A stretch of DNA of 64,000 nt from Liolophura sinensis. Taxonomy: Eukaryota; Mollusca; Polyplacophora; Chitonida; Chitonidae. The position numbers were made by a program, and so were the translations under genes. Below are positions 14,376-62,325 of this stretch, piece after piece; position 1 is the stretch's first letter, and each line of letters starts with the position of its first letter. The DNA lies in NCBI RefSeq assembly GCF_032854445.1, contig NC_088295.1, positions 89,448,644-89,512,643 of the forward strand. Direction: 5' to 3'. The notes beneath the pieces were generated by a model that was not told where the DNA came from, searched no databases, and saw nothing but the letters and a program-made list of their open reading frames with translations.

Positions 14376-14399
14376 ATTAAACGGTTTGATTATTAAACA

Positions 14400-19514: not shown

Positions 19515-20412
19515 CATACAGTTTCTCCACTGTACACATCTTCCATCAAACCAAACTCACATTTTTCATCAGACCACCCTCACATTTTCCATCAGACCAC
19601 TTACCTTTTCAATCAGACCATTTATATTTTCGATCAGATCAGTTTCACATTGCCCATCAGGCCACGCTCCCACATTTTCCACCAGACCACGCTCCGACGT
19701 TTTCCATCATACCACACTCACACATTTCCATCAGACCACACTCACACATTTCCATCAGACCACAGTCTCACACTGCCCATCAGATCAGTCTCACATTTTT
19801 CATCGGACAACACTCACATTTTCCATCAGACCACACTCTCAAATTTTCTATCAAACCACTTACGTTTTCAATCAGACCACTTACATTTTCTATCAAACCA
19901 CTTACATTTTCTATCAGACCACACTCTCAAATTTTCTATCAAACTACTTACATTTGCCATCAGACCACAGTCTCACACTGCCTATCAGACCACACTTTCA
20001 CATTTTCCATCAGATCACACTCTCACATTTTCCATCAGACCACACGCACATTTTCCATCAGACCACACTCGCATTTTCCATCAGACCACACTCACATCTT
20101 CCATCAGACCTCACTCTCACATTTTCCATCAGACCACTTACATTTTCCATCAGACCAGTCTCACACTTTCCACCAGACCACACTCTCACATTTTCCATTA
20201 GACCACTTACATTTTCCATCAGACCACACTCACATTGACCATCAGACCACAAACTCACATTGACCATCAGACCACAAACTCACTTTGACCATCAGACCAC
20301 ACTCACATTTTCCATCAGATCACACTCTCACATTTTCAATCAGACCACATCACGCTGCCCATCAGACCACACTCAGATTTTTCATTAGACCACACTCACA
20401 TCTTCCAAAAAC
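19515..20412. repeat. minisatellite, ~25 bp, ~35 copies
   Basis: A long array of a unit like CATCAGACCACACTCACATT with TTCC at the join, with variants CACTTACATTT and CAGTCTCACACTGCC. It shares its CCA/GAC/CACA texture with the preceding array, from which a 100-bp gap separates it. The long open frames here on both strands come from repetition. Confidence 0.92.
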
Positions 20413-35291: not shown

Positions 35292-38200
35292 TTACGAAAA
35301 ATAAAACAGCTTTACTTGATCTGTTGATCTCTTAAATAAATAGTCTGGCTCTGGGTCATAACCAAACAATTTGAAGTCTGGTTCATATATATCTCTGATT
35401 TGTCTGAGGTCGTCCATCGAGACTGTGCTGAAAGCCTCCACCAGAGCCTCTCGTCTGTTCAGCAGGACCGACATATTGCCAGAGCTGCGCTGGTAGGCCT
35501 CGCGCATGAACGCCAGAACATCAGCGTGTGAGACGCTGAATAGGAGACGCCATTGACGAGGCAGCTCTATGTCTTTATTTATCATACCCCTTACCTGAAG
35601 TTTCTTTAAAAGCCTGCGAAGAGCATCAGGGAATGGCATACAGTATCTCACCGATGGGGGGAAGAAACGAAAAAAATTATCAACATTCATTTTAAGGCGA
35701 AGCATAGCGGTTTCCCTGGGCATGTCTTTAAAAGTTGTTTGAGGTAAATACCGCCTAATGATATAGTCTCCTTCGGTACTGATTGTTTCCAGCTTAGCGA
35801 TTATGTCATATTCCAGTTGACAGGGGCTACACCTCTGGTATATCGGTTTCCAGTGCTGATCGGAATTTCCTCGTTTTATGTCGAATATGACGTATTTTAC
35901 GAACTCTGAGAACTTCACATTTTGCCCACAGCGAAGAGACAGTGCTCCCGCGTTTGGGCGGAACTTTCGGATGATTAACTTCCCGAGTTTCCAGTAGAGC
36001 GGGTTTGGAGAGTAGAATTTATCGATGAACGCCGCTAGGAGGCGTGTATAAGGGTTCCGAACAAGAAGGATGGACTTGTAATGTTTTAGAAACCAGTAAC
36101 CCACATCAAACTCTAGGTTTCGTAGATGTAGAGTGGATTTGTTGGCGCCGACGTCCGCCAGACGATCGTGATGGCTGGTTGGCTCTTCCCACAATTTATT
36201 CTCTAGCAACAGGTTTGACCAAAACGTGGAGGCGATCTTGGGCACGGGACAGTAGGCGAGGTGGTAGCGTTTGCTGATCACCAGCCTCTTCACAGATCCA
36301 TCTCCTCGCCACAAGGCCGCCTTGCTGGCGCACCGCCTCAGCAGGACACGGCGTCTGTTAAGGAAGACGTGACTCAGATTCACGTCATTTCCGGTGTCCA
36401 CTACTTGGAAAGTGTCAACTCTGGTTTCCACCTTGCCCTGAATTTAAGATAAAACATTAGTAGTAATTTCGGTAGCAAAACATAACAATAGCAGTTTGAT
36501 AATTGGGAAATGGTCACACATAACCAGTGAAATAAAGCATCTTGTCATTTTACATCAGTTAGGGCTTTATTCTAACCATTCATGTATATAGATGCTTCAA
36601 TAGTAACAAATCATGGGCCCCCTAGCACCATGTTGCTAGAGGCATACGGTATAGGCCTAAGTTCCTCGTTAGGTTTCCTAGTTTATGTTATGTGCATAAG
36701 AGATGTTACTGGAGACGTCCATCGCTTAATTTTAAACCATTTTACAAAGTAAAGTGGAGTCCATCATAATCTACACACTAGCTTGTACTGACATCATTCA
36801 AGATTAAATGTGAATAATAAATAAAATGGTAAATTGCACAAATGCTATAAGCACAGGAATTAAATGTTCATTGTTTAACAAGAATAAGTTGTGCAAAATT
36901 ATATACCAACTACCTGGTGTATCTGTGTTGGAATGGGTGATCCTTCCACTCGACTCGGAGATTAATTTACATGACCCTTATAAAGTTCTATACAGTCTGA
37001 AGGAGTATAATGTAGGTGTTGACAGTGTGTAGACAGCACGTTAACTTTCTGAGCAAAGTCACAGTTTTATATTCTAGTAAGCACCATGTTCAAACTTATG
37101 AAATATCACAAATGAAGAACGAATTAAACCAATAATGAGGAAGGAAAAACTTATATGTAACTATATTTTGTCGTATATAACAATGCTGTATAACTAGGGC
37201 ATTTTTATTTGGAATAAAGAGCATGTACATGTAGACTCGGCTGTGCTCTCCTCTCAAGAATATTATACTTTTTGAAAACGTTAAATGTTAAAATGTCCAC
37301 TGTTAAAATGATATAACAAGGTAAGTGCTGTAATATGAGTTAAACATGTTAAACATGTTAAAAATGTTACGTTACCCAAGCTGTGGCTTTATGGTCTAAC
37401 AAGATTTATAACATGCATAATGCAACATATAAAACTTTCATGTCATATATGGTAGTGTTAAATTACGACACTGTCTCATCATTCTGTAAAGTGTTAACTT
37501 TCTAAACTTCGGAAAGTGTTATGGAAGATGGAGTAATCTTGGCGGGTCAGTGATGAATATATTACCTGATGAACCGAATCTTCTGGTATGATATGCTGGA
37601 CACCAACACCTGACAAAAACAACAGCAGCTAGTTAACTACGGAAGCCCATAGTGGACATATTGCTACCTCGCTACCTCGACCTTTCTAATACAGGGCAAG
37701 GCTGCGAGGTAACGATGCAGAGAAGCGAGCTAACGAGGTAGAGAGGCAACGATATGACTTGCCTCGGTACGTCGCTACGTAGCTTGACTACCTCGCTTAG
37801 CTACCTCTTCTACCTCGCTACCTCGCCCTTTGTAAAGGCCGAGGTAGCAGGCCTTGTAAAGGCCTTTGTAAAGGCCGAGATAGCAAGATAGCGAGGCAGC
37901 AAGGCAGTGAAGCAACAAGGTAGCGAAGTGAGGTAGCGAGATTGAGGTAGCAAGATGTCCTCTATCGGCCTCCATACTAAACAGATTAGAATAATAAACA
38001 AGCAAAGTGACTCCGCAGAAATTCATTTTGACCATCTCAGTATTTTGACTTAATTCATCCTCAGGAGAGCTGTGTTTGGTTTCATATCAAAGCATATTTA
38101 TTAGATGAATGCTAAGGAGAACTGTTACAGGATGTTAACAGAATTAACACTTGTGCTTTTCCTGTTCTTATATAAATGAAATCCTTTAATCTGTGTCCCA

Positions 38201-40360: not shown

Positions 40361-40866
40361 GTTGTAACGCAACACCCACATTCACTGGACGTTGTAACGC
40401 AACACCCACATTCACTGGACGTTGTAACGCAACACCCACGTTCACTGGACGTTGTAACGCAACACCCATGTTCACTGGACGTTGTAACGCAACACCCATG
40501 TTTACTGGACGTTGTAACGCAACACCCATGTTTACTGGACGTTGTAACGCAACACACATGTTTACTGGACGTTGTAACGCAACACCCACGTTCACTGGAC
40601 GTTTTAACGCAACACCCACCTTTACTGGACGTTGTAACGCAAAACCCACCTTTACTGGACGTTGTAACGCAACACCCACATTCACTGGACGTTGAAACGC
40701 AACACCCACCTTTACTGGACGTTGTAACGCAACACCCACGTTCACTTGACGTTGTAACGCAAAACCCACCTTTACTGGACGTTGTAACGCAACACCCACG
40801 TTCACTGAACGTTGTAACGCAACACCCACGTTCAATGAACGTTGTAACGCAACACCCACGTTCAGT
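40361..40866. repeat. minisatellite, 30 bp x17
   Basis: Very regular copies of GTTGTAACGCAACACCCACG plus TTCACTGGAC. The 30-bp period keeps several frames open, giving 10-residue repeats on both strands. It lies between the sulfotransferase and the adhesion GPCR, with no splice or start context, so I do not call it coding. Confidence 0.95.
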
Positions 40867-41009
40867 GGCTGCCGGCGTATCCACGTGCATGTAACGTTAC
40901 GTACGTTTGCGACCTATGTTTTTATACATTAAACATGTTAAAAATGCGCTTGTATTGTTCCACCAGAAAAAAATTTGTTACAATATTCGCATTTTAGGTA
41001 AAAAGTGAC

Positions 41010-41825: not shown

Positions 41826-44800
41826 TCAGAGGAGTTTGTTTCGACGCTTTCTTCTTTGGGCGGACTGGCAGGCTGGTCGACGGACGGGGGGCTGCAGAAA
41901 GCGGTGCTTCCAAGCAGCTCGCACCTGTCCACTTCTGATCATGTGGGCAACCAGAATCAGGAAACCCTGTTCGGTGCAAGCAATGGTTACGGTAAAAAGT
42001 GGACAAATAATTCAGAAGCGTTTTTAAAACTGTTCAATACGGTTTGTAAAAGATTTCAATTTATCGCTGTCTATTTTTATCACATTTGGCGTCCGAAAGG
42101 TCGTATTATTAAGGGCATATTATTAAACCCTCATTCATTGTAATCACCTATACCAGGCCAAACCTGTACGGCATTGCTGACTCACCTGGGCTGGGTTAAT
42201 TATCGTGAAAATGTACTGGAAGAGAACTGTGCCAGGTCCGATAGGGGCCAGCCCGAAGATCCAAGTGAACCCCATCACGGGTATCAGTGAGACAATGGTA
42301 CAGATTTGGTGCCTGGAGTCAACAGAAATAACAACATCTCAGTGAGACAATTTGTACAGATTTGGTGTCTGGAGTCATCAGAGATAACAACATTCAGTTA
42401 GACAATGACACAGATCTGGTGCCTGGAGTTAAGAGAGACAACAACATCTTAGTGAGACAATGATTATACTTGGTCCCAGGAGTCGAGAGACACAACAACA
42501 TCTCAGTAAGACAATGATACAGATTGGTTCCTGAAGTCAAGAGACACAACAACATCTCAGTAAGACAATGATACAGATTTGGTTCCTGGAGTCAAGAGAC
42601 ACAACAACATCTCAGTGAGACAATGATACGGATTTGGTGACTGCAGTCAAGAGAGATAACAACATATCAGTGACACAATGGCACAGATCTGGTGCCTGGA
42701 ATTACCAGGGATAACAACACAACAGTGAGACAATAGTGCAGATCTGGTGCTTGGGGCCAAGAGAGATAACAACATATCAGTGAAGCAATGGTACAGAACT
42801 GGTGTCTGGAGTCAAGAGAGACAACAACATCTCAGTGAGACAATGCTACAGATCTGATGTCTCGAGTCAACAGAGATAACAACATATCAGTGAGACCATG
42901 GTGCAGATCTGGTGCCTGGAGTCAAGAGACACAACAACATATCAGTGAGACAATGGTGCAGATCTGGTGCCTGGAGTCAACAGAGATAACAACAACTTAG
43001 TGAGACAATGGTGCAGATCTTGTGCCTGGAGTCAAGAGAGATAGCAACATATCAGTGAGACAATGGTGCAGATCTGGTGCCTGGAGTCAACAGAGATAAC
43101 ATGTCAGCGAGACCATGTTACATATATGGGCCCAGTTTCATAAAGCGGGGTACAGCCCTTCCTTTATCGTACATTTGTCGCACGACATCTCTGAGAAACT
43201 GGGAGTTATGAAGTTTGGAGAAATAACAACGTATCAAGACAGTGTTAAAGAGATAGGTGCTCCAAATTTAAAGAGAAAACATTATATCTGTTCGGCAATG
43301 ATACAGATTTGGGAAATCTGGAAATCTTGATATCTTTGATTGTGTTAAGGTGACGTTTAACACATGTATTAATGAAATACGCTAACGACATGTCAAACAC
43401 TGGGCTTTAGTGTTGCTATAGTCTTGTTGATGTAATTCTTGTTCCGGTGTACCTGAGAATCTGACAGCACGGTACGGCACGGTTCCGATCATGACGCCAA
43501 CTGGCCCTCAGAACCATCACGAAGATCGTGAAATTCACCTACAACGACAGAGTAGTTACGTTAGGATCTCATACGGAAAATGCAAGCGATATCAGAATAA
43601 GGAATAAAAGTACAATAAAACATAGTGTTATATATAGCAATAAATCTGTATTACACAGTAGGCCTTAGACAACAGCTATAAGCTGTTATCACATGCCAAG
43701 TCTCGTGCTTGTGTTCCCGGCTTAACTTACCTGACCTATCTTCATGCTGGGAAATTAGTTTGATCTTCTTAAGCTAATTACACCACCCAGTTAGACCTAT
43801 ATTAATTACCAGAAATATTTGATTAATCGGATTACTGCTGCTGGCATATTGTTTCTCGTATAATGCGATATTACAAGAATATATAGGCCCTGCACAGATA
43901 GACAAAAGTAGAAGTTCATACTTTTAGGCGTGCAGGAAAAGTTTAAATAGTGTACTAAATCTCAACTCTAGAACCCGTATTGTGCTGATGTTATGTTGCT
44001 TTCGTTTCATGTTTGCTTACGGGGTAAATCCAGATTCATTCTTATCTCTGCCGTGGATGATCTTCACAGCAGCAGGTTGACGACAGTAACACTATACACA
44101 TAACCAATACTCATAACTCCTTCATCCACATGTAAACTGAAGCATGTTACTGCAACTATATACAGACAGAGGCTCTAGAATAGGGTATGTACCAGGCGGG
44201 TAAATATATGTACACTATTCTACAATATTAGTCTTATGTCAGTGAACTGTTTATGCACTGGGCGCAATCTGCAAATCATCAGTAAACTAATGTGAGCAAT
44301 AAAAGCAATTAGCAGCCATCCTGATAATCCCAGATTAATGCGTCGTGATCGATGAGATGAGCTGACAGATAGGTCTCTTGATGACTCATATATTAAAACA
44401 GCCAAGCAAGTGATGATACGCATTGCAGTTCATTGCTGATGAGTTTTCCTTTTTATGTGTGTGTAACCCTGACTCTTGGAACCCTAGGCGAGTTTTTCAC
44501 ATATTTAAAGCGTTTACGCATTGTTGATTTCCTGTTCCGATATTGGGGAGTACCGAATGTAAATAGTAAGCTGGCGATTAGAAACTCTGAATAAAAATGA
44601 AACAAGGATAAAATGTTGACGACTTTTACGGATCTTCAAAGATCTATCAGCATATTTCTGATTGCGTGTTATTAGAGGGCCACCTCTGTAGTATTTATGG
44701 TAGTTGTATTATAAGAGCAAGAACGTAGAAGTCGAACCAGGAGCAGCGACCAGTTTCACAAAGCGGCATACTTTTTTGTTTATTGTTCATTTGTCGTACG

Positions 44801-47800
44801 ATATTTTGTAGGTTACTGTTACAGTACCACTGTGTTATAGGTGCAATTATCGTACATGTGCGACATCTTTGTGAAACTGGGCCCAGGTGTGCATGTACAA
44901 CGGCTTATCGTCTCTCGGGTAGATCGAAGTGATGTTTGAGCTATATAAAACATCTCGAGGAAACATACCAAAATGGAAATGTTTTTCAAAGCTTACAGGA
45001 TCGTATTTTGCTGTCCACCTGTACTGTCTTTGACAAGCGCCCTATCGAATCAGAGAATACAGACTATGATGCTCGCGACAACTGAACTTACCGCCATGAT
45101 GAAGAGGACGGGTGCCACAAAGGCCCAGTGAGACCCATTAATGTGGGACAGCCAGCATCTGAGGTGAAAAAATTATACAATCAGACGTACAGTACCATAA
45201 CAGTATCGGGTAAACGGGAGATACAAACACACAAAGTACAGTATATACGTGAAGAGACGGAGATACAATCAGACATAGTACCGTACAATATGTGTGGGGA
45301 GGGAGAGATAAAAACACACGTAGAACAGTATATGTGTGGAGAGAGAGGGTACAATCCGACATAGTATAGTGTATGTGTGGAGAGAGGGGGTACACTCAGA
45401 GATAATACCATACAATATGTGTGCAGAGAGGGGGATAAAAACACACACAGTACAGTATTTGTTTGGAGAGAGGGGATACATTTAGACACAGTACAGTATA
45501 TGTGTGGAGAGAGAGGGAATACAATCAGACATAGTACACTATATGTGTGGAGAGAGGGGATAAAAACACACGTAGAACAGTATATGTGTGGAGAGAGAGG
45601 GTACAATCCGACATAGTATAGTGTATGTGTGGAGAGAGGGGGAACACTCAGAGATAATACCATACAATATGTGTGCAGAGAGGGGGATAAAAACACACAC
45701 AGTACAGTATTTGTTTGGAGAGAGGGGGGATACAATCAGACATAGTACACTATATGTGTGGAGAGAGGGGATAAAAACAAACATAGTGCAGTATATGTGT
45801 GGAGAGAGGGTGATACAATCAGATATAGTACAGTATATGTAGGGAGAGAGATGGATACAATCAGACACAGTACAGTATATGTGGGGAGAGAGGGAATAAA
45901 AACAGACATAGTACAGTGTATGTGTGGAGAGAGAGGGTAAAACAGACGCAGTACAGTATATGTGTGGAGAGAGGTCCACACTGCCAATGATGCTGACACT
46001 TAAATCGTTCACACTGCCAATGATGCTGACACCTAAACCGTCTACACTGTTAACGATGCTGACACTTAAATCGTCCACTCTGTTTGGAACCCAGGACATT
46101 GTCAAGACATCTTAGTAACTGCTCTCCCTGTACTTACTCTGACAGTGAGGTTATCACATGCACGTTATCTGCCTGTTGCAGTCTGGGTACTCACATGTGT
46201 TCCATACCGTAACCCTTGGGGTTGACAAGGGCGCATATGAGCACGATGAGGAGAGGCAGAAGCCAGCCGGTCAATACGTACATATAGCGCCTTTGCCAGT
46301 TCGGGCTTCGGTTCCCTAATCTCATCTGACGAGGAGACCAAACAATCACTGTTAGTGTCACTTATACCATATACATGCATAAAAGCAAAAGAGGAAAGAA
46401 AATAAATGAACTGAATTTACTGATGCCACTTTGTTTGACACACTTTGATCCAGAGCGCTGGCTCAGACGTACAAAGCGCTCGATCTCTGCCTCTGTCAGA
46501 CCATTGCCTATTAGGTCGACTGTTCGATTTCAGCTTTCGCTACACTGCCGGTGACTTTAAATCAGGAGTTTTGTATGATAAAATGTGCCTGGCTAAAGTT
46601 GTGGTTTCTTTGATTAGAGTTTTACGCCATACTTTCACTTAAACGACGGCAGCCAGTACTATCGTGGGAGAAAACTGGACGTCAATGCCCATCTACAGGC
46701 TGCTGGCAGACCTTTCTACGTACAAACGGAGATGAAGCCAACATGAGCTGGACTAGAAAACCACAGTGGTCACAGTGGTGAGAGCTTTCTGGGTCATCGT
46801 GCTGCGTACTGCAACTAAGACAAGTGAAATAAATATTTATAACTCAATGAGAAGCCTGTACCTGGACATGTTACCAGACAGTGCTTACAAGAACCTCGGA
46901 CTGCTCTGAGGTTAATCACGTCTTGTTTAACGATCTGGGTACAATACACTTATATTATTATTTTGAAATGCAGCGCCTCAACAGCTTACCTTCAGAAATA
47001 AATGAACACCATACACTAACATCCAGAAATGGAAGCACAGGAAGAAGTAATGCAGAACCCCGGCTGCCATCCTGCACATCGTCTGCAAAACAGTACCATG
47101 TGAATTTAGAGACAGCCATTTTGCCATGAAAGTCTTACATGTACATGTATGTTTATACATATATCCGGGCCATGAAAGCAAACACATTTAACAACAACGA
47201 TATGGCCATTGTCCAATCAGTCCACTAAAAGGAAGAAGTATGGATGGACAAACTGATTTAACTCTGACAAAAGGCAATTAAGTTCGTTTAAAATTAAATA
47301 TTTGGAATTATTTTTGAAAATCTTGGTTTATATTTTAGAAACTTTCTTTAGCAGTTTTGGTCACAGATATTCTCCGAACTTTGTATTATATACATGCACG
47401 TACATTATCCGGGTAGGAGTTCTCTATTCCCAGGTAACAGGTCTGCGAGCAGAGAAGCGACACGGCGATGTTCGCCACAATAAACATGCTGTCACTGCGC
47501 AACCTACAAGCAATAAATCAATGAGGACCGTGCACTAGAAAAACCTGTAACTTGGATAGTGCACTCAAACCTTTAAACAGGACTAAGCAATATGTACTTT
47601 TAGTCAGGATCACACACATGTATAATGAATTTATGTGAAAGATCATGACTTTTCACTTTTAAAACGTTTTATACTGGCTTTGGACCCAACTGGTAAATCT
47701 TTACTGTTTCAGTTTAGAAAAGAAAAACACTGATAATATAATAATAATTAATTATACAGGAAAATGCTAGCAAACATAATGAGAAATGCCGTTGAATTTC

Positions 47801-48726
47801 AGGAAAAGCTGCAGTGATGTTCTTTATAACACAGAGTCCTTTTGTCTTGTCACAGCCCGTAAGAGTTGTTTCAGTGTAGAGATGTAACAGTAAAACTGGT
47901 TGACTCACGGTAAGAAACAGACGAGGAATATGGTGAGCATGACGCCCATGACGGACAGGCCACAGCCCACCATGGTGATCCTCATTAGGGCGTCTTCAAC
48001 GCTGGCGTCCAGCTGTAAACAGAAACGCACAAAAGACAATGTATATCTAACGAGTGAAGAATGGCAACGTATTGAGAAGATAAGATGCAACTAGGAGTCA
48101 CCCGGGTATTACGCACTGTGGATGACGACTGGGTCTTACACTGATGCTGGTAAATCGTTTAGACAATGTAATAGACAACTGGATCTTGCATTGATAGGTC
48201 TAAATTGTTTGTATAATTTAACTGAAAACTGGGTGTTATCCTGACATTATCATCAAATAATGGATGGTGGATGGTAATCTGACAACTGGGTCTGGTCTGA
48301 TCAAGACATTGTCGCATTATATGGATGATATAACAGAAAATCGGGCCTACTCCTAAAGTTAGGATTCATTATACAGCAGAAAACTGGGTCTTATACTGGC
48401 ATTATCATCAGATCGTATGGATGGTAATCTGACAAGTGGTCTGGCCTGATCAAGATCATGTCACACTATAGGGATGATCTAACAGAAAATCGAGTCTCTT
48501 TCTAATGTAGGACTCATCATACAACAGAAAAATGGGTCTTATTCTAATATTATCAACTTGAGAACAATAACAGAACAAACAACAGATTACTAGGGCATAC
48601 TGTCAAGCTCTGCTAGCGTGGATGGGAGAACAAATGATTGTAACCTACCGTGACATTTCCCATGTGCATGAGAAACCCATAGTACGGCATGGTGAATTGT
48701 GTACGCTTGTCACCGGAACTGGTTAG
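41826..48726 (-). CDS. adhesion-type GPCR (class B2), seven-TM region
   Basis: Nine phase-matched exons: 48649-48726, 47909-48012, 47404-47503, 46990-47082, 46195-46325, 45092-45158, 43453-43538, 42186-42312 and 41826-41966 (stop TGA). Together they give 308 residues. The first exon carries the end of the GPS/GAIN region (LTSSGDKRTQF, GFLMHMGNV). TM1 is ALMRITMVGCGLS. TM2 begins LRSDSMFIVANI. TM3 is TMCRMAAGVLHYFF with FWMLVYGVHLFLK. TM4 is GWLLPLLIVLIC with NPKGYG. The extracellular Cys and TM5 are ICWLSHINGSHWAFVAP and VNFTIFVMVLRA. TM6 is LIPVMGFTWIFGLAP. TM7 is GFLILVAHMIRSGQVRAAW. These match the adhesion family. The tail is short and basic (QRRKRRNK). The N-terminal ectodomain is not resolved; only ~3.9 kb separates this gene from the SLC16 stop. 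The start given here is an exon edge, not an ATG. Confidence 0.88.
42313..43105. repeat. minisatellite (~55 bp x~14) copying TM6 exon edge
   Basis: Unit (plus): CAGATTTGGTGCCTGGAGTC, then AAGAGACACAACAACATCTC and AGTGAGACAATGATA. On the transcribed minus strand each copy holds CTCTTGACTCCAG/GCACCAAATCTG, i.e. the 3' splice site and start of the real TM6 exon (starting at 42312), plus ATTGTCTCACTGA from inside that exon. The array fills most of the intron 42313-43452. Confidence 0.92.
43128..43212. mobile_element. partial palindromic MITE (CAGTTTCA family)
   Basis: GGGCCCAGTTTCATAAAGCG, then TCGTACATTTGTCGCACGAC and CTGAGAAACTGGG: a shortened copy of the 44.75-kb element. Confidence 0.65.
44747..44884. 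mobile_element. palindromic MITE (CAGTTTCA family)
   Basis: The terminal inverted repeats are CAGTTTCACAAAG and CTTTGTGAAACTG. Inside, TTTGTCGTACGATATTTTGT and TATCGTACATGTGCGACATC also mirror each other. About 135 bp, in an adhesion-GPCR intron. Confidence 0.82.
45172..45975. repeat. minisatellite (GTGTGGAGAGAG), higher-order 258 bp
   Basis: Units of about 42 bp built from ACAGTATATGTGTGGAGAGA, GAGGGGATACAATC and AGACATAGT. A block including ACACACGTAGAACAGTATAT recurs 258 bp apart (about 45308 and 45566), showing a second level of duplication. On the transcript it is rich in CCCTCTCTCTCC. It begins ~14 bp from the acceptor of exon 45092-45158. Confidence 0.9.
45976..46085. repeat. 33-bp repeat x3
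   Basis: Three copies of CACTGCCAATGATGCTGACA plus CTTAAATCGTT with minor changes, adjoining the previous array in the same intron. Confidence 0.88.
46612..46830 (+). mobile_element. dispersed element (GTGTTTTACG family)
   Basis: From AGAGTTTTACGCCATACTTT through CACTTAAACGACGGCAGCCA, CAGGCTGCTGGCAGACC and GAAGCCAACATGAGCTGGAC to GGGTCATCGTGCTGCG. A near full-length, diverged copy in an adhesion-GPCR intron. Confidence 0.8.
48110..48560. repeat. degenerate tandem repeat, AAAACTGGGTCTTA motif
   Basis: Several diverged copies of a block with GATGATATAACAGAAAA, CTGGGTCTTA and ATTATCATCA. It lies in the intron just upstream (minus strand) of the TM1 exon acceptor. Confidence 0.75.
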
Positions 48727-48911
48727 CTGAAAGCAAACACGCTAATGTTTTAGTGTGGTTTATAATAGGTAGGTACATGTAGGTTTTTTTCCTGAAAAGG
48801 GATGTCAAAGGAGAGAAGTGCACGATTGTGTGCTTAGAATAATGCATTTCTTTTTCGATCCCTAATGTGCTGAGATTGTTCCAGTTAAGCATACACAGAA
48901 GTCCAACTTAC

Positions 48912-48949
48912 CTGTGACAGAGATGCTCTCGTAGTGATACCGTTACGAC
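48912..48949 (-). CDS. candidate GPS mini-exon of adhesion GPCR
   Basis: A strong donor (GTCACAG/GTAAGT) ends at 48912, and a weak acceptor (CACACTTCAG) opens at 48949. The frame that joins the next exon reads GITTRASLSQ, and the junction reads SLSQLTSS where a GPS normally reads CxCxHLT. The phase is compatible, but the acceptor lacks a good pyrimidine tract and a TGA lies just upstream in this frame. It could be spurious. Confidence 0.32.
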
Positions 48950-49370
48950 CTGAAGTGTGCTCTCATAGCCTGGGTTGTTTTGTAACGGTGATGCCCAAAG
49001 GGTCATGATCATTCCGCTAAATAGGGTGAGTAGGTGACACACGATTGGTTCATAAGCACGCATTGATTTGGGGATTAAGTTGGCTTTCTCATCTGCCCAA
49101 ATCCTGGCTTGTCACATCACTGGAACTTGAACGTGTCTCTCGTCATTCCAATCACAATAACTACACAATCAATCCCCAATGAGACCATGTCACGTATATA
49201 TCATGTGCGTATTCAGTCGTCAGGATATTGACATCAGTACACCTGATGTTTGCAGGAATGCCCATTCTATCCAGATACAGCCCATAAAAACACGATGTTA
49301 AATATTTCTTCATGGCTATAATATTGAATCATATGACTTAGCTGATATTTAAAAGTTGGCTGTTTATACA

Positions 49371-49512
49371 TCTTTCACAAAGCGGCGAACGGCATTTAAA
49401 GTATTGTACATTTGTCGTACGATATTTTGTACGTCACTAGTACCGTACTAGTGTGTTATATGCGCTATATCGCACAAGTACGACATCTTTGTGAAAGTTG
49501 CCCCAGTGCCCA
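49371..49512. mobile_element. palindromic MITE (CAGTTTCA family)
   Basis: CTTTCACAAAGCGGCGAACG on the left and GACATCTTTGTGAAAG on the right; ATTTGTCGTACGATATTTTG inside, as in the 44.75-kb copy. A degraded fragment (GCCCAGTCTCACAAAGATG) follows at 49503-49560. Confidence 0.78.
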
Positions 49513-49974
49513 GTCTCACAAAGATGTGGTACAGGTGCAATAATCCCACATATAGGACAATGTTAAGAATTGCCCCTTTCTGATACCAATCTGTTATCCA
49601 ACATCTTTTCCTCCAGCAAATATAAGATCATTCTTCGCCTACTACATTGTCTTCCATACATGAAGTTATTTTGATTAGATGGAATTTTTTAACATGTGGC
49701 ACATGTGGCATATTTTCTTTTGGAATGTTATCGAATATAACTTATGATGTTTCGAGGATACAAAATATTGAAAACACATCTGTGTTCTTTGAATGAGAGA
49801 GCATTTAGGGATCAAATGTTTAACACGAGCTGTAAAATATAGTTGCTTTATTTGCAATATTTTAGTATTGGGATACTTCGCTTTATACAGAAATGGGGGG
49901 TTGAGGGGGGTGGGAGTGTGCCTATACTAAAATGTTGTTTAAGTGGCAGTTTTACATTACAAATGGTTTAGCCG

Positions 49975-50145
49975 AATGCCTACACTAAAATGTAACGTAC
50001 TGGTGGCATTTATACAGTTCTTCAGCGGTAGTGTATATAGAGGTGATGTAATTAAATGTCTACACTAAAATGTAGCGTACTAGTGGTATTTATACAGTAC
50101 TACAGAGGTAGTGTATATAAAGGTGATGTAATAAGATATCCTACA
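49975..50145. repeat. tandem repeat, ~80 bp x2
   Basis: Two copies with CTACACTAAAATGTAGCGTA, TTTATACAGTACTACAG and GGTAGTGTATATAAAGGTGA, plus a flanking partial copy. Confidence 0.85.
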
Positions 50146-50701
50146 CTACATCTTCCCGTAGTGTAGAGACGCCGTTTTAGCAAGTACTTAAGCTATAATG
50201 TATAGTTTAGGCGGAACTTCTACACTTCGTCGACATTAACCCTGCGCTATCCTTAAAGTGTGAAAATGGAACAGAACGAAAACTGGTTTCAGAAAATCAG
50301 ATGAAAGAGCGAGAACACTTATTTGCAAATACGTTTTTCAATTTTTTGAGGAAAAAGGGGTATTTTTGCTTTGGTGGGTATTTCTGACCACCTCTTAGTA
50401 CGTAGAACCTTATATTGTGCAGAATAGTGTTCCAAATTATTTAAATGTAAATTTGTTGTTTGTATTCAAACACATGCATTTAATCTGAATTGTGATAATA
50501 TTTATGAATATATTAAAATTTCAATTTTACTGACAATGTACTGAAGACCACATTTACAATTCACGTTTTGTGTTCTTCATGTGAACTTTATGTAATTTCC
50601 ATGTTTTTCTTCATCTATTTTGTACTTCATATCACATAGATCTTTATGCGAAAGAAATAAAGGCAATAACGTTGCAGTTAACACAAACATAACCGACGTA
50701 C

Positions 50702-50812
50702 CTATTCGGACACCATCCGAACTCCGCAATCCGCCAATTTTGAATCACATCTCTAGAACACCTTGTACGCTTTTGAACAACAGATGTCAGATCTGTATTT
50801 CTGACTGTTAAA
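50702..50812 (-). CDS. candidate ectodomain exon, unknown
   Basis: Acceptor CCATTCTTCACAG, donor CCGAATAG/GTACGT, open frame of 36 codons (QKRTRCSRDVIQNW, EFGWCPN). It is on the same strand and in the interval where the adhesion-GPCR N-terminus should lie. The phase (one base in, two bases out) does not directly prove linkage. No domain is confidently recognised. Confidence 0.28.
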
Positions 50813-51318
50813 CTGTGAAGAATGGAACAGGCTTCAGATCTACCACGCACACCAATTCATAATGCAGTCACAACTCACTGTATGGCAAACACCATTGCAT
50901 GATGCACTCATTCGTCTAATGATGATTTAGTTTTAATTCATGTTTAATCATAACATAAGATTTAACATAAGATTTTGAGGAACTCTTTGTGCTCAAAGAA
51001 AAACGAATCCGGTTGATATTTTCAATCATGTTTTATCATAAAATATCAAATATAGAAAGACACATGTAGGTATTCTCCGAATCCGCAACAATCAGATTGT
51101 ATTAACACATATGCACATAATCATCATGCACTGGCGACTTCCGGTGTATACATGTACGTGAGAAATAATGTCCATCGACTGCCCAATATCGAGAAGTAAT
51201 ATAATTGACATTTGATGCTGTGTTTGTTGCTGTGTGCTCTGGATGATAAATATTAGCCCAGAGATAGGTTAGCCATGTTCCCAGCTAAGCTTCTACATTA
51301 ACAGCTCTTATTTGTCAC
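50813..51318. other. no gene seen
   Basis: AT-rich interval between the candidate ectodomain exon and the SINE; nothing supportable. Confidence 0.4.
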
Positions 51319-51319
51319 A

Positions 51320-51555
51320 ACGGCCCCGATGGCAAAGTTGGTAGAGCGTCCGCTTCGAGGGCGGTAGATCCAGGGTTAATCCTGGGTCGGACCACACCTA
51401 AGACCTTAAAAGAGGAAGTTGTAACTTCCTCGCTTGGCGTCCAGCATGAAGCGGATAGTGTAATGACTGGTTGACCCGTATCAGTATAATGGCTCGGGCG
51501 GTGCGGCTTACTTCCCTTCGGCAAGTCATCTCAGTGAAGCAGCACTAAATAAAAG
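51320..51555 (+). mobile_element. tRNA-headed SINE, truncated copy
   Basis: Head CCCCGATGGCAAAGTTGGTA / GAGCGTCCGCTTCGAGG (A-box-like) and CCAGGGTTAATCCTGGGTC (B-box-like), then AAAAGAGGAAGTTGTAACTT and the TCAGTATAATGGCTCGGGCG region. It stops after GAAGCAGCACTAAATAAAAG, lacking the GAGTGAG end present in the copy at 25.9 kb. Confidence 0.85.
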
Positions 51556-52596
51556 TGGAACGAAGGAACTGGGGTGCCTCGAGTAAACCGCTCACCTTTG
51601 GTAATTTACTGGTTATCTTTGTCACACATAAGACGTTAGAATTAATAGAAAACTACACAAATTGAGCATAAATGTTAGCAATTAAATGAATGCACTTGTC
51701 TGGGTGATGCCAGAATGTATTCTTCTATTGCATCCGGTCATTTTGTTAAATATGGCACAACTATTCTTATAATTACACATAAAACTTCTATTAGACTAAC
51801 ATGATATTATGTTAATTATGACACAGTATTATGTTATAACAACGGAATAAATACTTTCTGTTCAAATTAACAAATTTATGTTTTTGAGCGCGAACAAATG
51901 AATGAGTAAGGCCAGTATGGCCATATTGCAGCCGTCATTGTGCGGCTCGAGTAGAATACACATGTTTTTAATACGTAATTAACCTCTTTGGAGGCCACAA
52001 CGTAACGTGAACAACCGGAATTAGACAAGTACATCTACAACTAAAGAAGATGTGCTCGAGTCTTATAATGTAGTCACTCAATGAGAAATCCCTCCTCTTT
52101 TACATATGTATACGATGGAGAAAGTCGTGTCTTCCGGCATTTTCTGCCAAAAGTATATATCCATTTGTTGCTACCTTGGTCTGTTTCCCATGGAACCGGT
52201 CTGTTGTCTAACTATCAAGGCTTTGAAATATTTTTAAGTCATAATTCGTCGTAATTCGTTTGCATTGAACAATTTCTTTTCTAATTATCCAGGAATCAAA
52301 CCAACATACACTTTTTGCTGCAAATTAGAAGGTTGTCTTTTATTTTTTATCATAATTCTTCAAGCACTTCTTCAGGGGCATCTTCCGCTTGCTATCAAGA
52401 GTTATGGCCTGTGTTTTGTTGTTGAGGCCTCAGCTCAAAACCTGACTGCAGAAATAACACAGCCATCATTTTCATCTATGCTTTGTGCTATAGGAATGTC
52501 ACAGGTTTTCAGCCTACAACTTTGTCAGTCTTGTTACTTCAAGATGTTAGACATGACAGATGTTATCTGAACCTTTTCCTGACGGAGATAAGCTTT
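51556..52596. other. no gene seen
   Basis: Includes a 101-codon plus-strand frame at 52265-52570 that I do not accept as a gene. Confidence 0.4.
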
Positions 52597-52602
52597 TTTA
52601 TT
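52597..52602 (-). promoter_or_regulatory. polyadenylation signal (AATAAA) of SLC16 gene
   Basis: Minus-strand AATAAA, 101 bp after the TGA at 52703-52705, a normal distance for a short 3' UTR. Confidence 0.55.
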
Positions 52603-52702
52603 TTCATTTACTGAATTTTGGCAGTTCTGTTGTCCACAGATTCCATAAAGGTATTTGTGTAGTATGAGCTCTTTGGCCTTTTCTATGCATCTTGTGCTAG
52701 AT

Positions 52703-55686
52703 TCAATCGCTACATCTTCTTCTGGACTTCTTCAGACACTTTTCGACGGATCGTATACAGACACAGGTGAGCATTCCCAGAGTGTACACGGCCGCCGTCA
52801 GCAGGTAGGGGGGTAGATAAGACTGGGTGTGGTCATACAAAGCACCTGTAAGGAAAAGTAATCACATGCAGTTCTTTTCATGGGCATATAAATATCCTTA
52901 TCATATATACAACATATTTACCATATCTTGCAGGAGGGTGCAATACTCTGGCTATGTTCTCTCCAAGGGTACAAGGTCGATAACAATTTCAATACGAACG
53001 GCTTACATTGATGGATTGGAAATTAAGTCTCTATATGTAAAACATATTTTACATATAGAGGGAAAAAATCTTGTGTATCGCGTTAAGGATCACTCCAGAT
53101 CAATAAGTTAATATACGTACTACAATGAATATGAGTAACAAAAAATTCACAATTTTGAAAATGAGCGCATCAGTATGTTCATTATACTGAGTGTAGAATG
53201 ACTACATTCGCTGTAAACGACACAAGTTACCATCTCCATTTGCTGCCACATGCAGAACATTCCCTTAACTCCAATGTGAACTAAATAAGACATCAATAAA
53301 TTTTGCAAAGAGGATAGTACGGAACCCTGTTAAGACTATCACCGTGTCATTCTTGTTCCATTGTAGTATCACCCAACGATGGGCCGATAAACGATGGGAA
53401 GATGCTACGCAGCGATAGTCATCGCCAATGGTCTGCTAGCCCTCGGTGAACACAAGCCTATGTCTACTGTGTTCATCTTGAAAACTCCGGGAGATACTGG
53501 CAATGTCAACATGATCAAGACAACTCACTCAGGTTTGAAATCGTGATGATTGGCAATGTGTGCCTTACCTGAGATTGGAGGGCCAACAATGAATGCAAAG
53601 CCTTGAACAAATGCCACGATTCCAAATGACTTTGTCAGCTTAGAAATGCCCAGAACATCAGCGAGAACTATCGTTCTTAAAGACACACATCCGCCTACAA
53701 CATCAACAACATCAAAGAGGATTATGGAAAGGTGACATAAGACAACAGTAGGACAACCCTTAAAAGGTTTCGCTGGAGCAATTCTGTTTGAGACTTGCAT
53801 GTACTTTATCCTCCCAACTAGAGGGGCAAAATTACGACGATTTATGAACAAGAACACATAGTTTTGATATGTATATTTTTCACACCAGATAAGGAGATAC
53901 ATCGAATGTTACAACTGATAATGGCGTCAGCGAAACGTCCACGAAAATATCGTATAATATAAGAAGGACATTACCCATACACAAGCCGAAGACACACGAA
54001 CACACCACAAACAGAGCGAAGGAGGAACAAAACGGCATGAGAGCAGAAGATAAGCCATCCAACAACAAGGCGCATGCGTATATAAGGACACTGTCGATGT
54101 TTTTGCGATTTGCCAACCATCCAGCAATCAGCCGGCCAAGTATGTTTGTACCGCCGACTATGGAGACTAGCAGAGCTGCTTGCATGGTCGACACCCCACG
54201 TGAGACAGCCAGGTCAGGTAAAAACATCACAGCTGTGCCTTGTCCTGACAAAACATAGAGAGTCATGGGTTTACAGACAGGTTAGGTAAAAACATCACAG
54301 CTGTGCCTTGTCCTCACAAAACAGAGAAGTTATGGGTTTACAGACAGGTCAGGTGAAAACATCACAACTGTGCCTTGTCCTCACAAAACAGAGAAGTTAT
54401 GGGTTTACAGCCAGGTCAGGTAAAAACATCACACCTGTGCCTTGTCCTCACAAAACAGAGAGGGTTATGGGTTTACAGCCAGGTCAGGTAAAACATCACA
54501 ACTGTGCCTTGTCCTTACAAAACAGAGAGGGTTATGGGTTTACAGCCAGGTCATGTAAAAACATTACTATTGTGCCTTGTCCTCACAAAACAGAGAGAGT
54601 TATGGGTTTACAGACAGGTCAGTTGAAAACACCACAACTGTGTCCTGTCCTGACAAAACAGAGAGAGTTGTGGGTTTACAGACAGGTCAGGTGAAAACAC
54701 CACAACTGTACCTTGTCCTGACAAAACAGAGAGAGTTGTGGGGTTTACAGACAGGTCAGGTAAAAACACCACAACTGTACCTTGTCCTGACAAAACATAG
54801 AGAGTTGTGGGTTTACAGACAGGTCAGGTGAAAACACCACAACTGTGCCTTGTCCTGACAAAACATAGAGAGTTGTGGGTTTACAGACAGGTCAGGTGAA
54901 AACACCACAACTGTGCCTTGTCCTGACAAAACATAGAGAGTTGTGGGTTTACAGACAGGTCAGGTGAAAACACCACAACTGTGCCTTGTCCTGACAAAAC
55001 ATAGAGAGTTGTGGGTTTACAGACAGGTCAGGTGAAAACACCACAACTGTGCCTTGTCCTGACAAAACATAGAGAGTTGTGGGTTTACAGACAGGTCAGG
55101 TGAAAACACCACAACTGTACCTTGTCCTCACAAAACAGAGAGAGTTGTGGGTTCACAGACAGGTCAGGTGGAAACATCACAATTGTGCCTTGTCCTGACA
55201 AAACAGAGAGAGTTGTGGGTTTACAGACAGGTCAGGTGAAAACACCACAACTGTGCCTTGTCCTGACAAAACATAGACAGTGACAGATTTACAGCCCGTT
55301 TGGGTAAAAACATCACAACTGTGCCCTCCCCTGACAAAACCGGGTTGTGAATTTTCAACTAAATCAAATAAAATCACCATAACTGTGCCCTGTCCTCACA
55401 AAACAGAGAGAGTTATGGGTTCACACCCAGGTCAGGTAAAAACACCACAGCTGTGCCTTGTCCTGACAAAACAGAGAGAGTTATGGGTTCATAGCCAGGT
55501 TAGGTAAAAACACCACAGCTTTGCCCTGTTTCGTTACCAGTAATTTCAGTAACAATACAAGTGTGCATTGTTATTGAAGTAGGCAGTGACCATTGCTGTG
55601 TTAGGTGTTAGGATTTACTTCCCTTTATAGGTTACACGATCGCATTGATTTTCCTTACCATTTATGTAGTAAATTCGTCAACACCA

Positions 55687-55767
<81 letters not shown>

Positions 55768-58032
55768 AATATGCAGCTCTTCAACATTTCAAAAAATCAA
55801 CCAAGCATGACCACCATTTTTTAGCTGTAGTTGTTGGAAGTCATAGCAAATTGTTGGTGAGTTCCAGGTGTTGGGTAGTAACACTGACCATAAAGGTTTC
55901 AGCTCTATCCAAAACAGACAATGGTCTTACATATTTTAACTTGATGCAAAATGGTAGAGCAGAAATATATAGTGTATCACAACCCAAAATGTCTGTGTGG
56001 TAGTATTACCCAATTAGTGCTCCTTCCCTCTTCAGTTCGGAGGCAAATCTTGGACACAACTGCCGCATATTTAACCAATAAAAGGGTTTGTAAGCCCCAT
56101 TACAGACCTTTGCATGAAGTACGATACTGACCTGTCCAGCACACCATGGTGACCAGCAGCATAAGGAAGCGGCCGTCAGTTATCAGGTCTTTATAAGCCT
56201 GCAGAATCAAGCCTCGTCTAGACGATTCTTTCTCAGCCAAGGACTGTTCACGTGATGCTTGATTCTGACTTGAGTTGAAACTGGCCATGTTAATCAGGAA
56301 GGACACCATGTTCGGATCTCTTTGATATTCCGGTAGGTTGTACAGACTGCCGCTGTAAAATATATCCTTCCTGTGAAGAGGGTGTCCGAAGATTTCCTGC
56401 AATGTTTTTGGATTATTTCCCTGAACCTGTAAGCTGTGAAGATGGAAATCACTCTGGTACCTCCGAACCTTTGTATCACATTTAGAGGTCATTTGTTCGA
56501 TACTTCTAGATAGCCTGAGCTGATTGTCGGTAACGATGAGTCTGTCCACACTAGAGAGAACTTTAGTCCGAGGTACGTGTATATTAGGCGGAGTATTATC
56601 GAGGCCCTCAGACACCCGTATCACAGGTGGGGGTGCCTCACAGGATTCACTGTGGAGAGGAACCTTTTCTGGCGGAATTGATGTTGTCGACCTATGGCGT
56701 CCATTTTTCACAAAATATGAAGTACATCTAGAGAAAATATTGGAGGGCTCTTTGACAAGGGGACGAACTAAGGCTGCACACACGAGAAGGTTGCACACTA
56801 TCCCTGCTGTAATGAGCACACTTCCCTGCCAGCCGTATGAGATTACCACTCGTTCCGACAAGTAGGAAATCGCAAATGTTCCTAAGCCCGAGCCACTGGT
56901 TGCTATGCCCGTTGCTAACGCTCTTTTCGTGTTAAAATGAAGTCCGACGGCTAGAATAGCCGTTATGAAGGTCAGACCAAATCCAGCACCTGGTTAAGGA
57001 GTCCACAGGAAATTGCAAGTTATAAAGTGGCAATATAAATGGGGTTTGCTTTACGTGATTAAAGTATTATGTGAGCTGCCTAGAAAATGGAAAAATGTTC
57101 AGTGGACGACATGTTAAAATATGGCTTTATATATCGAATGCATACAGCGAATGCTCAAAAGAAAATCAACACAACTCAAGTTACAGACGGGCAAATAAAT
57201 AGTCACTGGGATGCTTATTAGACGATGTTCAATATTGAAATATACCATACCTCCGAGTACACCGAAAGTAAAGATTAACGTCTCAATGTTTAGAGAAAAG
57301 ACGCTGAAGAAAAACCCAGCTGTTGAAATGAGGCTGCCCAAAATCATCACCTGTCGACAGCTGAAAAACTCCAGTAGTAGGCTGACCGCTGGTCCTGAAA
57401 CACACAGTATGGGGACCTGAAAACACTACCAGTGTTAGTGACGACGATGTTGTATACACCTGTTTTGATTTTATCCTGCAAATGAATTATTTTCTTATGC
57501 AACGTAGAAACAATAGACTGCCATAAACTGAATTAAATCTCGCCGAGTCATCTTCCCAGGCTGCAGCATTTACAAACAAGCATGCTGATGGCTACAGACT
57601 TTCATGTTTACCTGAGGCCCACAGGCCCACGTTAGGGGAGACCAGTTTACTTTACAGACAGACAGGTTTAAGGCCGAAACTGCTAGGCTTACCCATAAAC
57701 ATGCACGTGCCTACCAAACTGGAGCCTACCCAGGCTGTCTTAGACCTGGTCTCATCAAAGTACTCCAAAAGGCTCAGTAAGAGGACTCCGAAAGAAAAGA
57801 TGACGCCGTCAACGATAAAGTTGGCGATGAAACAGGAGAGACAAACCATCCAGGCCCAGCCCTTGTCAATGTCTGGTCCGGCCACGGCCTCGTTCACCTC
57901 ACGCCCCGTCAGCTCGCCCTCTGTGTCTTCCCATGTTACGTGGTCCTCCTGACCGTCATCTCCCGTCGGCTCCCTTTTCTGTACATCCACATTCTCCTGG
58001 TGTGGACAGTCCCCCTCCTCATTTGGGGACAT
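52703..58032 (-). CDS. SLC16-family monocarboxylate transporter-like protein
   Basis: Six phase-matched exons: 57693-58032 (ATG at 58032), 57251-57394, 56132-56989, 53975-54244, 53569-53694 and 52703-52845 (TGA). They give 626 residues, long for the family. It is a plasma-membrane major-facilitator transporter with about 12 TM segments. After an acidic cytosolic N-terminus comes the SLC16 signature as DKGWAWMV (residues 56-63) entering TM1. Then come AWVGSSLVGTCMF, VMILGSLISTAGFFFSVF, GAGFGLTFITAILAVGLHF and RALATGIATSGSGLGTF. A large cytosolic loop separates TM6 and TM7 (exon 3). The C-terminal half has MQAALLVSIVGGTNILGRL, VLADVLG and GPPISGALYDHTQSY. The family moves monocarboxylates or related solutes; the substrate is not inferable. 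DKGWAW replaces the usual DGGWGW. Intron 3 carries a decoy-exon minisatellite. Confidence 0.95.
54245..55540. repeat. minisatellite (67-68 bp x~19) copying SLC16 exon 4 edge
   Basis: Unit (plus): TGTCCTGACAAAACATAGAG, AGTTGTGGGTTTACAGACAG, GTCAGGTGAAAACACCACAA, CTGTGCCT. On the transcribed minus strand each copy reads CTATGTTTTGTCAG/GACAAGGCACAG and on to CCTGACCTG, reproducing the acceptor and first ~40 bp of the real exon 4 (starting at 54244). The copies nearest exon 4 are closest in sequence to it; the far end (55.3-55.5 kb) is degenerate. Confidence 0.95.
55690..55764. repeat. (TA)n microsatellite
   Basis: About 37 uninterrupted TA dinucleotides in SLC16 intron 3. Confidence 0.97.
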
Positions 58033-61214: not shown

Positions 61215-62325
61215 CGCAGCAAATAAACAAGGTTTGATAACAAATGTCTGTATGTCTCTCTGTATACCATTGATGGTGATAACTGCTGTGTATGTTTCTC
61301 TGTATACCATTGATGATGATAACAGCTCTTTATGTCTCTCTGTATTCCATTGATGTTGATAACCGCTGTGCATGTCTCTCCGTACACCACTGATAGCGAT
61401 AACTGCCGTGTATGTCTATCTGTATACATAACTTTTTTATGGTGATAACTTTTTGTCTGTATACCATAGATTGTGATAAGCGCTCTGTATGTCTCTCCGT
61501 ATACCACTGAAGGTGACAACTGGTTTGTATGTGTGTCTGTATACCACTGCTCTGTTTTTCTGTCTGTATACGACTGTTGTGTTTGTCTATATACCACTGA
61601 TTGTGGTAACTGTCTGTCTGTATACCACTGATGGTGATAACTGCTCTGTATGTCTGTTTGTATACCACTGATGGTGATAACTGCTCTGTATGTCTGCCTG
61701 TATACTACTGATGGTGATAACTGCTCTCTGTGTCTGTCCGTATCTCATTGATGGTGATATCTGCATTGTATGTGTGTCTGTATACCACCCATGGTGATAA
61801 CTACTTTGTGGGTCTCTCTGTATACCACTGATGGTGATAACTACTTTGTGTGTTTGTCTGTATACCATTGATGGTGATAACTGCTCTGTATGTTTGTCTG
61901 TATGCCCTTGATGGTGATAACTGCTCTCTATGTCTATCTGTATGCCAATGATGGCAATAACTGCTCTTTGTCTGTCGGTATGCCATTGATGGTAATAACT
62001 ACCTTGTGTGTCAGTCTGTATGCCATTGACAATGATAACTACCCTGTGTGTCTGCCTGTATTCCATTGATGGTGATAACAGCTCTGTATGTCTATTTGTA
62101 AGCCACTGATGGCAATAACTGCTTTTTGTCTGTCTGTATGCCATTGATGGTAATAACTACCCTGTGTGTCTGTCTGTATGCCATTGATAGTGATAACTGC
62201 TATTTGTGTCTGTCTGTAGTCCATTGATGGTGATAACTACCCTGTGTGTCTGTCTGTATGCCATTGATAGTGATAACTGCTCTGTATATCTGCCTGTATT
62301 CCTTTGCTGTACAGAAGTGCTGTTT
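61215..62325. repeat. minisatellite, 40 bp, ~27 copies
   Basis: Unit TATACCACTGATGGTGATAA, CTGCTCTGTATGTCTGTCTG. The period is exactly 40 bp over long stretches (for example 61621, 61661, 61701, 61741, 61781). Long minus-strand frames inside are artefacts. Confidence 0.93.

What the first reader, a model, noticed from the sequence alone, without database searches (positions are those of the whole stretch)
41826..58032. Common pattern: minisatellites seeded at, or ending on, intron 3' ends
Several intronic arrays sit at the acceptor end of their intron: SLC16 intron 3, the adhesion-GPCR introns before the TM6, TM4-5 and TM1 exons, and (outside this span) the GAGGTAGC repeat before the sulfotransferase micro-exon at 37.6 kb. 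Two of them contain copies of the exon edge itself. One possible mechanism is local slippage or R-loop-linked duplication at polypyrimidine tracts, with purifying selection sparing only the real exon. I know of no described family with this behaviour, though I cannot search.
Basis: inference. Interest (0 to 1): 0.8.

Follow-up and report, generated by a model that had tools for sequence, protein, structure and literature searches.

The report
Chiton minisatellites copying exon edges ("mirages")
Two introns in this chiton DNA are filled with tandem copies of a stretch that spans the start of the next exon, a pattern already described in amphioxus, and a sample of other genes shows no special clustering of such repeats close to intron ends.

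Summary
The sequence observation holds for two of the five cases. In SLC16 intron 3 (54205-55529, 68 nt x 19.6) and the adhesion-GPCR intron before TM6 (42284-43101, 55 nt x 14.9) each unit copies the 3' splice site plus 28-40 nt of exon edge. The TM5 array has no exon copy, the TM1 repeats are not a detectable array, the sulfotransferase repeats are weak. The acceptor rule fails: among 135 hand-picked exons at 122 other loci, arrays cross 3 of 115 acceptors and 2 of 106 donors; cover within 200 nt is 6.3% on both sides (p = 0.98); edges are crossed less (2.3%) than intron interior (7.0%). The kind is known: amphioxus "mirages". The genome matches the chiton Liolophura japonica, so this extends mirages to a mollusc. 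Best explanation: ordinary minisatellite birth at places unrelated to splice edges; those straddling an edge survive because only the copy joined to the exon is usable (0 of 87 AGs in the two arrays give an open frame). Against a flat picture: over 0-1000 nt arrays are denser upstream of acceptors than downstream of donors (9.9% v 4.5%, p = 0.026), wholly from 400-1000 nt (12.0% v 3.5%, p = 0.002); unexplained.

The parts
54205..55529 (-). Minisatellite, 68-nt unit x 19.6, in SLC16/MCT intron 3; each unit = pyrimidine tract + splice AG + about 40 nt copied from the exon-4 5' edge
   Evidence: TRF; unit layout; copies and frames; a genome search returns only itself
53975..54244 (-). MCT exon 4 (real exon; acceptor TTTTGTCAG|GACAAGG)
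   Evidence: boundaries and frame; edge residues align without gap to solved MCT2 from the third residue of the exon on; paralogue L021 has GHASILTYVPDLAVSRGV at the same acceptor; MFS_1
42284..43101 (-). Minisatellite, 55-nt unit x 14.9, in the adhesion-GPCR intron before TM6; each unit = pyrimidine tract ending in CTCCAG + about 28 nt of the TM6 exon edge
   Evidence: TRF; layout; frames; none of the 40 scored genome matches other than itself covers the unit
42186..42312 (-). Adhesion-GPCR TM6 exon
   Evidence: boundaries; joined TM3-TM7 exons match 7tm_2, E 7e-35
45220..46082 (-). Two adjoining arrays (41-nt and 33-nt units) filling 83% of the TM4-TM5 intron; no exon copy
   Evidence: TRF; edge test
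45094..45158 (-). Adhesion-GPCR TM5 exon
48150..48530 (-). Degenerate repeats upstream of the TM1 exon (acceptor 48012); not a detectable tandem array
   Evidence: by eye; TRF at score 30 finds no such array
37663..37960 (-). Short imperfect GAGGTAGC-type repeats upstream of the sulfotransferase micro-exon (37609-37566)
   Evidence: Sulfotransfer_2 in the main exon 35295-36443, E 2.8e-38
40361..40868 (.). 30-nt x 16.9 array between the sulfotransferase and the coding end of the GPCR gene: an array outside the recognised coding introns

Best explanation
These are ordinary young minisatellites in a minisatellite-rich genome. A short segment is tandemly duplicated (slippage, unequal sister exchange or repair), and the array grows and homogenises locally. 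Seeds fall in introns and outside the recognised genes without regard to the splice edge. When a seed happens to span an exon edge, every unit carries a copy of the splice site and of the exon's first (or last) bases: a 'mirage' in the sense used for amphioxus. It is tolerated because the copies lie on the intron side and only the copy joined to the exon body gives an open reading frame. Shown: unit content, no second locus found for the units, the old coding nature of the MCT exon edge, equal array cover near acceptors and donors within 400 nt, occurrence at both edges, no open frame from any AG inside the two arrays. Inferred: the duplication mechanism, its timing, and actual splice-site use.
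For: Unit layouts. Genome searches: one search returns the MCT array alone (1 candidate); the 39 other scored hits all lie at query 58-145, in a flanking element, none in the unit. MCT edge residues GTAVMFLPDLAVSRGV align without gap with solved MCT2 and the paralogue keeps PDLAVSRGV, so the exon is the source. Frames: a stop follows from 18 of 18 recognised MCT copies and 14 of 14 TM6 copies; of all AGs in the array parts, 0 of 56 (MCT) and 0 of 31 (TM6) stay open to the exon's end. Sample of 135 exons in 122 loci: copied edge, gapped score 22 or more, at 3 of 115 acceptors and 3 of 106 donors (one donor weak, exactly 22); TRF arrays cross 3 of 115 and 2 of 106. Cover within 100 nt 4.7% v 5.8% (p = 0.70), 200 nt 6.3% v 6.3% (p = 0.98), 400 nt 6.8% v 5.9% (p = 0.70); edge crossing 2.3% v 7.0% interior, difference -7.6 to -2.0 points. 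Null: 0 of 221 shuffled flanks and 0 of 132 exon middles reach 22. 72 arrays, 7.8% of 281,182 bases, in 46 of 122 loci. The paralogue L021 has no array at its exon-4 acceptor but one in intron 1: arrays come and go.
Against: Over 0-1000 nt the upstream side of exons is richer in arrays than the downstream side (9.9% v 4.5%, p = 0.026), all of it from 400-1000 nt (12.0% v 3.5%, p = 0.002); after cutting flanks at neighbour exons 11.1% v 4.9% (p = 0.023) and 14.5% v 4.4% (p = 0.005). In the first 86 exons alone the 900-nt difference was 9.6% v 5.7%, p = 0.19. It is post hoc (five ranges), seen in four families and absent in SNF, and highest far from the acceptor, but unexplained. For donors alone the edge deficit is not significant (-5.0 to +0.03 points). 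All three array-bearing introns in the span have the array nearer the acceptor. No transcript evidence. The genome DNA search skips simple repeats and common words, and only 40 of 73 candidates were scored, so uniqueness of the TM6 unit is likely, not proven.
Confidence: 0.8

Rival explanations
1. Acceptor-seeded expansion: polypyrimidine tracts or R-loops at intron 3' ends start the duplications, so arrays cluster at acceptors.
For: Two of 13 acceptors and none of 12 donors tested in the window are copied; all three array-bearing introns in the span lean to the acceptor; arrays are denser 400-1000 nt upstream of exons.
Against: No excess within 0-400 nt of acceptors; cover rises with distance from the acceptor (4.1% at 0-50 nt, 13.0% at 800-1000 nt); donor-edge arrays exist (L073, L077); arrays also lie outside the recognised genes.
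Confidence: 0.08
2. The arrays belong to a transposable element or satellite family that inserted near acceptors and later donated the splice site and exon edge.
For: A dispersed element of about 70 nt, hairpin-like by eye, sits directly beside the TM6 array.
Against: No further place with either unit was found (one candidate; 40 of 73 candidates scored); the MCT exon edge is old coding sequence.
Confidence: 0.03
3. The decoy acceptors are used: the arrays are banks of alternative 3' splice sites that tune expression by yielding unproductive transcripts.
For: 11 of 18 MCT copies and 11 of 14 TM6 copies keep CAG at the boundary; the five MCT copies nearest the real exon have GAG or AAG, as if silenced.
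Against: No transcript data; neighbouring copies share ancestry, so five weak copies may be one or two mutations; TM6 shows no such pattern (its two nearest copies keep CAG); amphioxus RT-PCR was taken to show that mirages do not disturb splicing (PMC3087553 passage).
Confidence: 0.09

Closest known systems
[quoted passage not shown] The Adh paper of 2002 (title seen in a reference list) is not held.
   Same: Minisatellite-like unit spanning splice site and exon edge; either exon edge; many copies keep splice signals; homogenisation inside the cluster
   Different: Here in a mollusc (chiton); 15-20 copies of 55 and 68 nt (BflGb6: 150-160 nt, 3 or 6 copies by haplotype; Adh3 units 10-72 nt); no transcript test and no length polymorphism test here
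Variable internal tandem repeats in human segmental-duplication genes (PMC2812944, passages)
   Same: Minisatellites that, at exon-intron boundaries, may create novel introns through cryptic splice sites
   Different: Half lie in coding sequence; on average about 30-nt units repeated 4 times; compared among recent paralogues
Intronic minisatellites without exon content, e.g. earthworm metallothionein intron 1 (PMC12783039, passages)
   Same: Like the TM5 array: tandem units inside an intron
   Different: Reported as conserved between two species, with 'reflective' monomers; the TM5 array is head-to-tail

Membership tests
Mirage (tandem duplication of an intron-exon boundary) | Unit spans the splice edge and contains exon sequence | tested here: met
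   SLC16 and TM6 arrays; not met for the TM5, TM1 and sulfotransferase cases (edge scores 13, 10 and 12)
Mirage (tandem duplication of an intron-exon boundary) | Tandem, minisatellite-like, with local homogenisation | tested here: met
   TRF; MCT adjacent copies 0.899 identical v 0.867 three or more apart, TM6 0.829 v 0.812: small difference, weak in TM6, not tested for significance
Mirage (tandem duplication of an intron-exon boundary) | Copies do not disturb the mRNA | not testable with these tools
   only frame logic: a stop follows from 32 of 32 recognised copies
Mirage (tandem duplication of an intron-exon boundary) | Both exon edges can be affected | tested here: met
   not in the window itself (0 of 12 donors) but in the same genome: donor cases L073, L077
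Mirage (tandem duplication of an intron-exon boundary) | Copy-number instability between alleles | not testable with these tools
   one haploid assembly only
   6.3% v 6.3% cover within 200 nt, p = 0.98; 6.8% v 5.9% within 400 nt, p = 0.70. Over 400-1000 nt there is an upstream excess (p = 0.002, post hoc)
Transposon-borne repeat | Unit dispersed in the genome | tested here: not met
   1 candidate; 40 of 73 candidates scored; none beside itself covers the unit; the search skips simple repeats and very common words

The most novel reading that the evidence does not exclude
Mirages are a steady, genome-wide by-product of minisatellite turnover in chitons (about 2% of splice edges sampled), giving genes spare splice sites next to real ones; selection silences the decoys nearest the real site (five of five nearest MCT copies GAG or AAG; GG in place of GT in the three donor copies of L077), and now and then a decoy is adopted, moving an exon edge or making an intron.
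Probability: 0.15. Interest if true: 0.6.

Novelty: new member of a known kind. Interest (0 to 1): 0.35.

Why it matters
In the open-licence papers I could search, mirages under that name came up only for cephalochordates; a mollusc with the same structures suggests they can arise wherever minisatellites are frequent. They place many copies of a splice site beside the real one, a natural test of how the spliceosome chooses and of the idea that tandem duplication makes new introns. The negative result matters too: a striking pattern in one window is not borne out as a rule about intron ends in an independent sample.

Tried and rejected
Acceptor-seeded model: tested on 115 acceptors and 106 donors; no excess within 400 nt. 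Transposon origin of units: genome searches gave no second place for a unit, with the limits told above. Exon acquired from the array: rejected for MCT because the edge aligns without gap to MCT2 and to the paralogue; not tested for TM6. Gradient of copy similarity towards the exon: Spearman -0.45 (p = 0.06) in MCT and +0.40 (p = 0.15) in TM6, no consistent direction. Whole introns inside the fetched flanks: 65 views, 6 array rows (5 distinct arrays) at relative positions 0.19-0.91, too few to tell. Literature: 480 papers, 20 listed; mirage, minisatellite, amphioxus: 2 papers; 19 papers, 15 listed; chiton, minisatellite, intron: 2 papers, both on Theileria by title; 5 papers, none on point by listing; 2 papers: the amphioxus and the human one. 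No report of mirages in molluscs came up in these; that is not proof of absence.

Rows dropped and doubtful rows: of 135 exons, 20 acceptors scored under 1.0 and 29 donors under 2.0 on a hand-made splice matrix and were left out. Exons were picked by hand from family hits (short open frame, as a rule no stop inside; a few had one), not at random, and several are paralogues. In L013 the acceptor is uncertain (two candidates 27 nt apart, both inside the array); in L073 the real donor may be the copy 45 nt earlier. In one search two rows were set at the wrong base (one MCT row, one TM6 row); one search repeats the frame test with these mended and over every AG, and its counts are the ones used.
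Full report
What is there. The span holds two minus-strand genes: a monocarboxylate transporter (SLC16/MCT; start 58032, last exon near 52703; MFS_1) and an adhesion-type GPCR (stop 41826; 7tm_2). Of ten introns I delimited in them (MCT intron 2 left out, the TM1-TM3 stretch not resolved), three hold arrays: MCT intron 3, GPCR TM4-TM5 and the GPCR intron before TM6, filled to 68%, 83% and 69%.

Two are exon-edge arrays. In MCT intron 3 each 68-nt unit reads, on the gene's strand, AAACCCAYAACTCTCTCTGTTTTGTCAG|GACAAGGCACAGYTGTGRTGTTTTYACCTGACCTGKCTGT, with variants; the last unit runs into exon 4. In the GPCR each 55-nt unit carries a pyrimidine-rich stretch ending CTCCAG|GCACCAGATCTG, and the last runs into the TM6 exon. 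The exonic parts of the copies are 70-97% (MCT, 18 copies) and 75-93% (TM6, 14 copies) identical to the real edge. The TM5 array has no exon copy (edge score 13; 50 for each of the two real cases). The TM1 and sulfotransferase cases do not hold as arrays ending on acceptors.

Direction of copying. A genome search with the MCT array returns only itself. The TM6 query has 39 further scored hits, all to a roughly 70-nt dispersed element beside the array and none to the unit (40 of 73 candidates were scored, and the search skips simple and very common words). The MCT exon edge encodes GTAVMFLPDLAVSRGV, which aligns without gap to MCT2 of known structure. The paralogue in L021, whose recognised exons begin about 27 kb from the window gene, has GHASILTYVPDLAVSRGV at the same acceptor. 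So the exon is old and the array is derived from it; for TM6 this was not tested. L021 has no array at that acceptor but one (65 nt x 14) in intron 1, where the window gene has none: the arrays are younger than that duplication or turn over fast.

Which copy is used. If a copy were spliced to the preceding exon, reading would meet a stop in 18 of 18 recognised MCT copies and 14 of 14 TM6 copies; over every AG in the array parts, 0 of 56 and 0 of 31 stay open to the end of the exon. This is frame logic, not transcript evidence. CAG stands at the boundary in 11 of 18 MCT copies and 11 of 14 TM6 copies. The five MCT copies nearest the real exon carry GAG or AAG. It could reflect silencing, but neighbouring copies share ancestry, so one or two mutations would be enough, and TM6 does not show it.

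Is there a rule about acceptors? I took 135 exons of five families (7tm_2, MCT, SNF, kinesin, P450) from 122 places, as a rule with 1000 nt on each side. 115 acceptors and 106 donors passed a splice-matrix threshold. An edge counted as copied if a 60-nt window across it had a gapped match scoring 22 or more within 1000 nt; 0 of 221 shuffled flanks and 0 of 132 exon middles reach that. Result: 3 of 115 acceptors (L002, L013, L067) and 3 of 106 donors (L073, L077 and a weak one, L027). Arrays found by TRF cross 3 of 115 acceptors and 2 of 106 donors. Intron-side windows 150-900 nt away reach 22 in 81 of 680 (upstream) and 31 of 628 (downstream). By the crossing test edges stand at 2.3% and interior at 7.0%; the difference has a 95% interval of -7.6 to -2.0 points (acceptors alone -11.9 to -2.0; donors alone -5.0 to +0.03, not significant). 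Array cover within 200 nt is 6.3% on each side, p = 0.98. So arrays do not seek acceptors; they are under-represented at exon edges, as purifying selection on exons would give.

What goes against a flat picture. Over 0-1000 nt the upstream side is richer (9.9% v 4.5%, p = 0.026), wholly from 400-1000 nt (12.0% v 3.5%, p = 0.002). It stays so after cutting flanks at neighbour exons recognised by tblastn (11.1% v 4.9%, p = 0.023; 14.5% v 4.4%, p = 0.005). In the first 86 exons the 900-nt difference had p = 0.19. The range was chosen after seeing the data, one of five. Four families show it (7tm_2, MCT, kinesin, P450); SNF, whose sampled exons are mostly N-terminal, does not. A gradient along genes is a guess I could not test within the letter limit. 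It is opposite to what seeding at the acceptor would give, since cover falls towards the acceptor (13.0% at 800-1000 nt, 4.1% at 0-50 nt).

Organism. The mitochondrial order nad3-nad2-cox1-cox2-atp6 read from L076 (genes named by my own reading of the ORFs) fits, from memory, the ancestral molluscan one. Contig lengths 96,433,062, 60,359,117, 58,388,612, 37,343,639, 32,819,725, 28,395,274, 25,057,479 and 19,479,325 and the count of 632 contigs equal those printed for the chiton Liolophura japonica (PMC11068029, passages); two large contigs and the total (609,464,459 v 609,495,693) differ slightly. That assembly is from PacBio HiFi reads, which makes misassembly of 1-kb arrays unlikely, though I could not see reads.

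What it is. The structures fit the mirages described in amphioxus globin and Adh3 genes (PMC3087553, passages) and mentioned for troponin C and PGBD5 (PMC3902484, passage): tandem units spanning the splice edge, at either edge, with splice signals kept in many copies. Those passages say that splicing is not disturbed and propose that such arrays may give rise to new introns. I file the two arrays as mirages, newly seen in a mollusc as far as the searches listed under Tried and rejected show. The TM5 array is a plain intronic minisatellite. No special acceptor mechanism is needed.

Noticed in passing
122 sampled loci, 400-1000 nt from exon edges: Arrays cover 12.0% upstream of acceptors but 3.5% downstream of donors (p = 0.002, post hoc). 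Cause unknown; perhaps a gradient along genes.
   Followed up: partly
window 43126-43188: A roughly 70-nt dispersed element, hairpin-like by eye, directly upstream of the TM6 array, with 39 further scored matches in the genome; a similar stretch lies near 44750-44885 by eye.
   Followed up: partly
window 54312-54581: The five decoy acceptors nearest the real MCT exon 4 are GAG/AAG; of the 13 farther copies 11 are CAG.
   Followed up: partly
L077 (donor edge at position 1370 of the sense strand): A kinesin-gene donor mirage: three intronic copies of the exon end, each with GG where the real donor has GT.
   Followed up: partly
G000:C1:89534073-89547131 (L021, L035): Inverted MCT paralogue about 21-35 kb beyond the window end (exon 1 hit may belong to a separate gene), with its own 65-nt x 14 array in intron 1 and none at the exon-4 acceptor.
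   Followed up: partly
window 12050-20407, 40361-40868, 61247-62306: Large minisatellites outside the genes I recognised (best periods about 23-87 nt); arrays of period 8 or more cover 12.5% of the window.
   Followed up: no
G000:C99: Seven COX1 matches spaced about 15.5 kb apart in one contig: a tandemly repeated mitochondrial genome, probably an assembly artefact.
   Followed up: no
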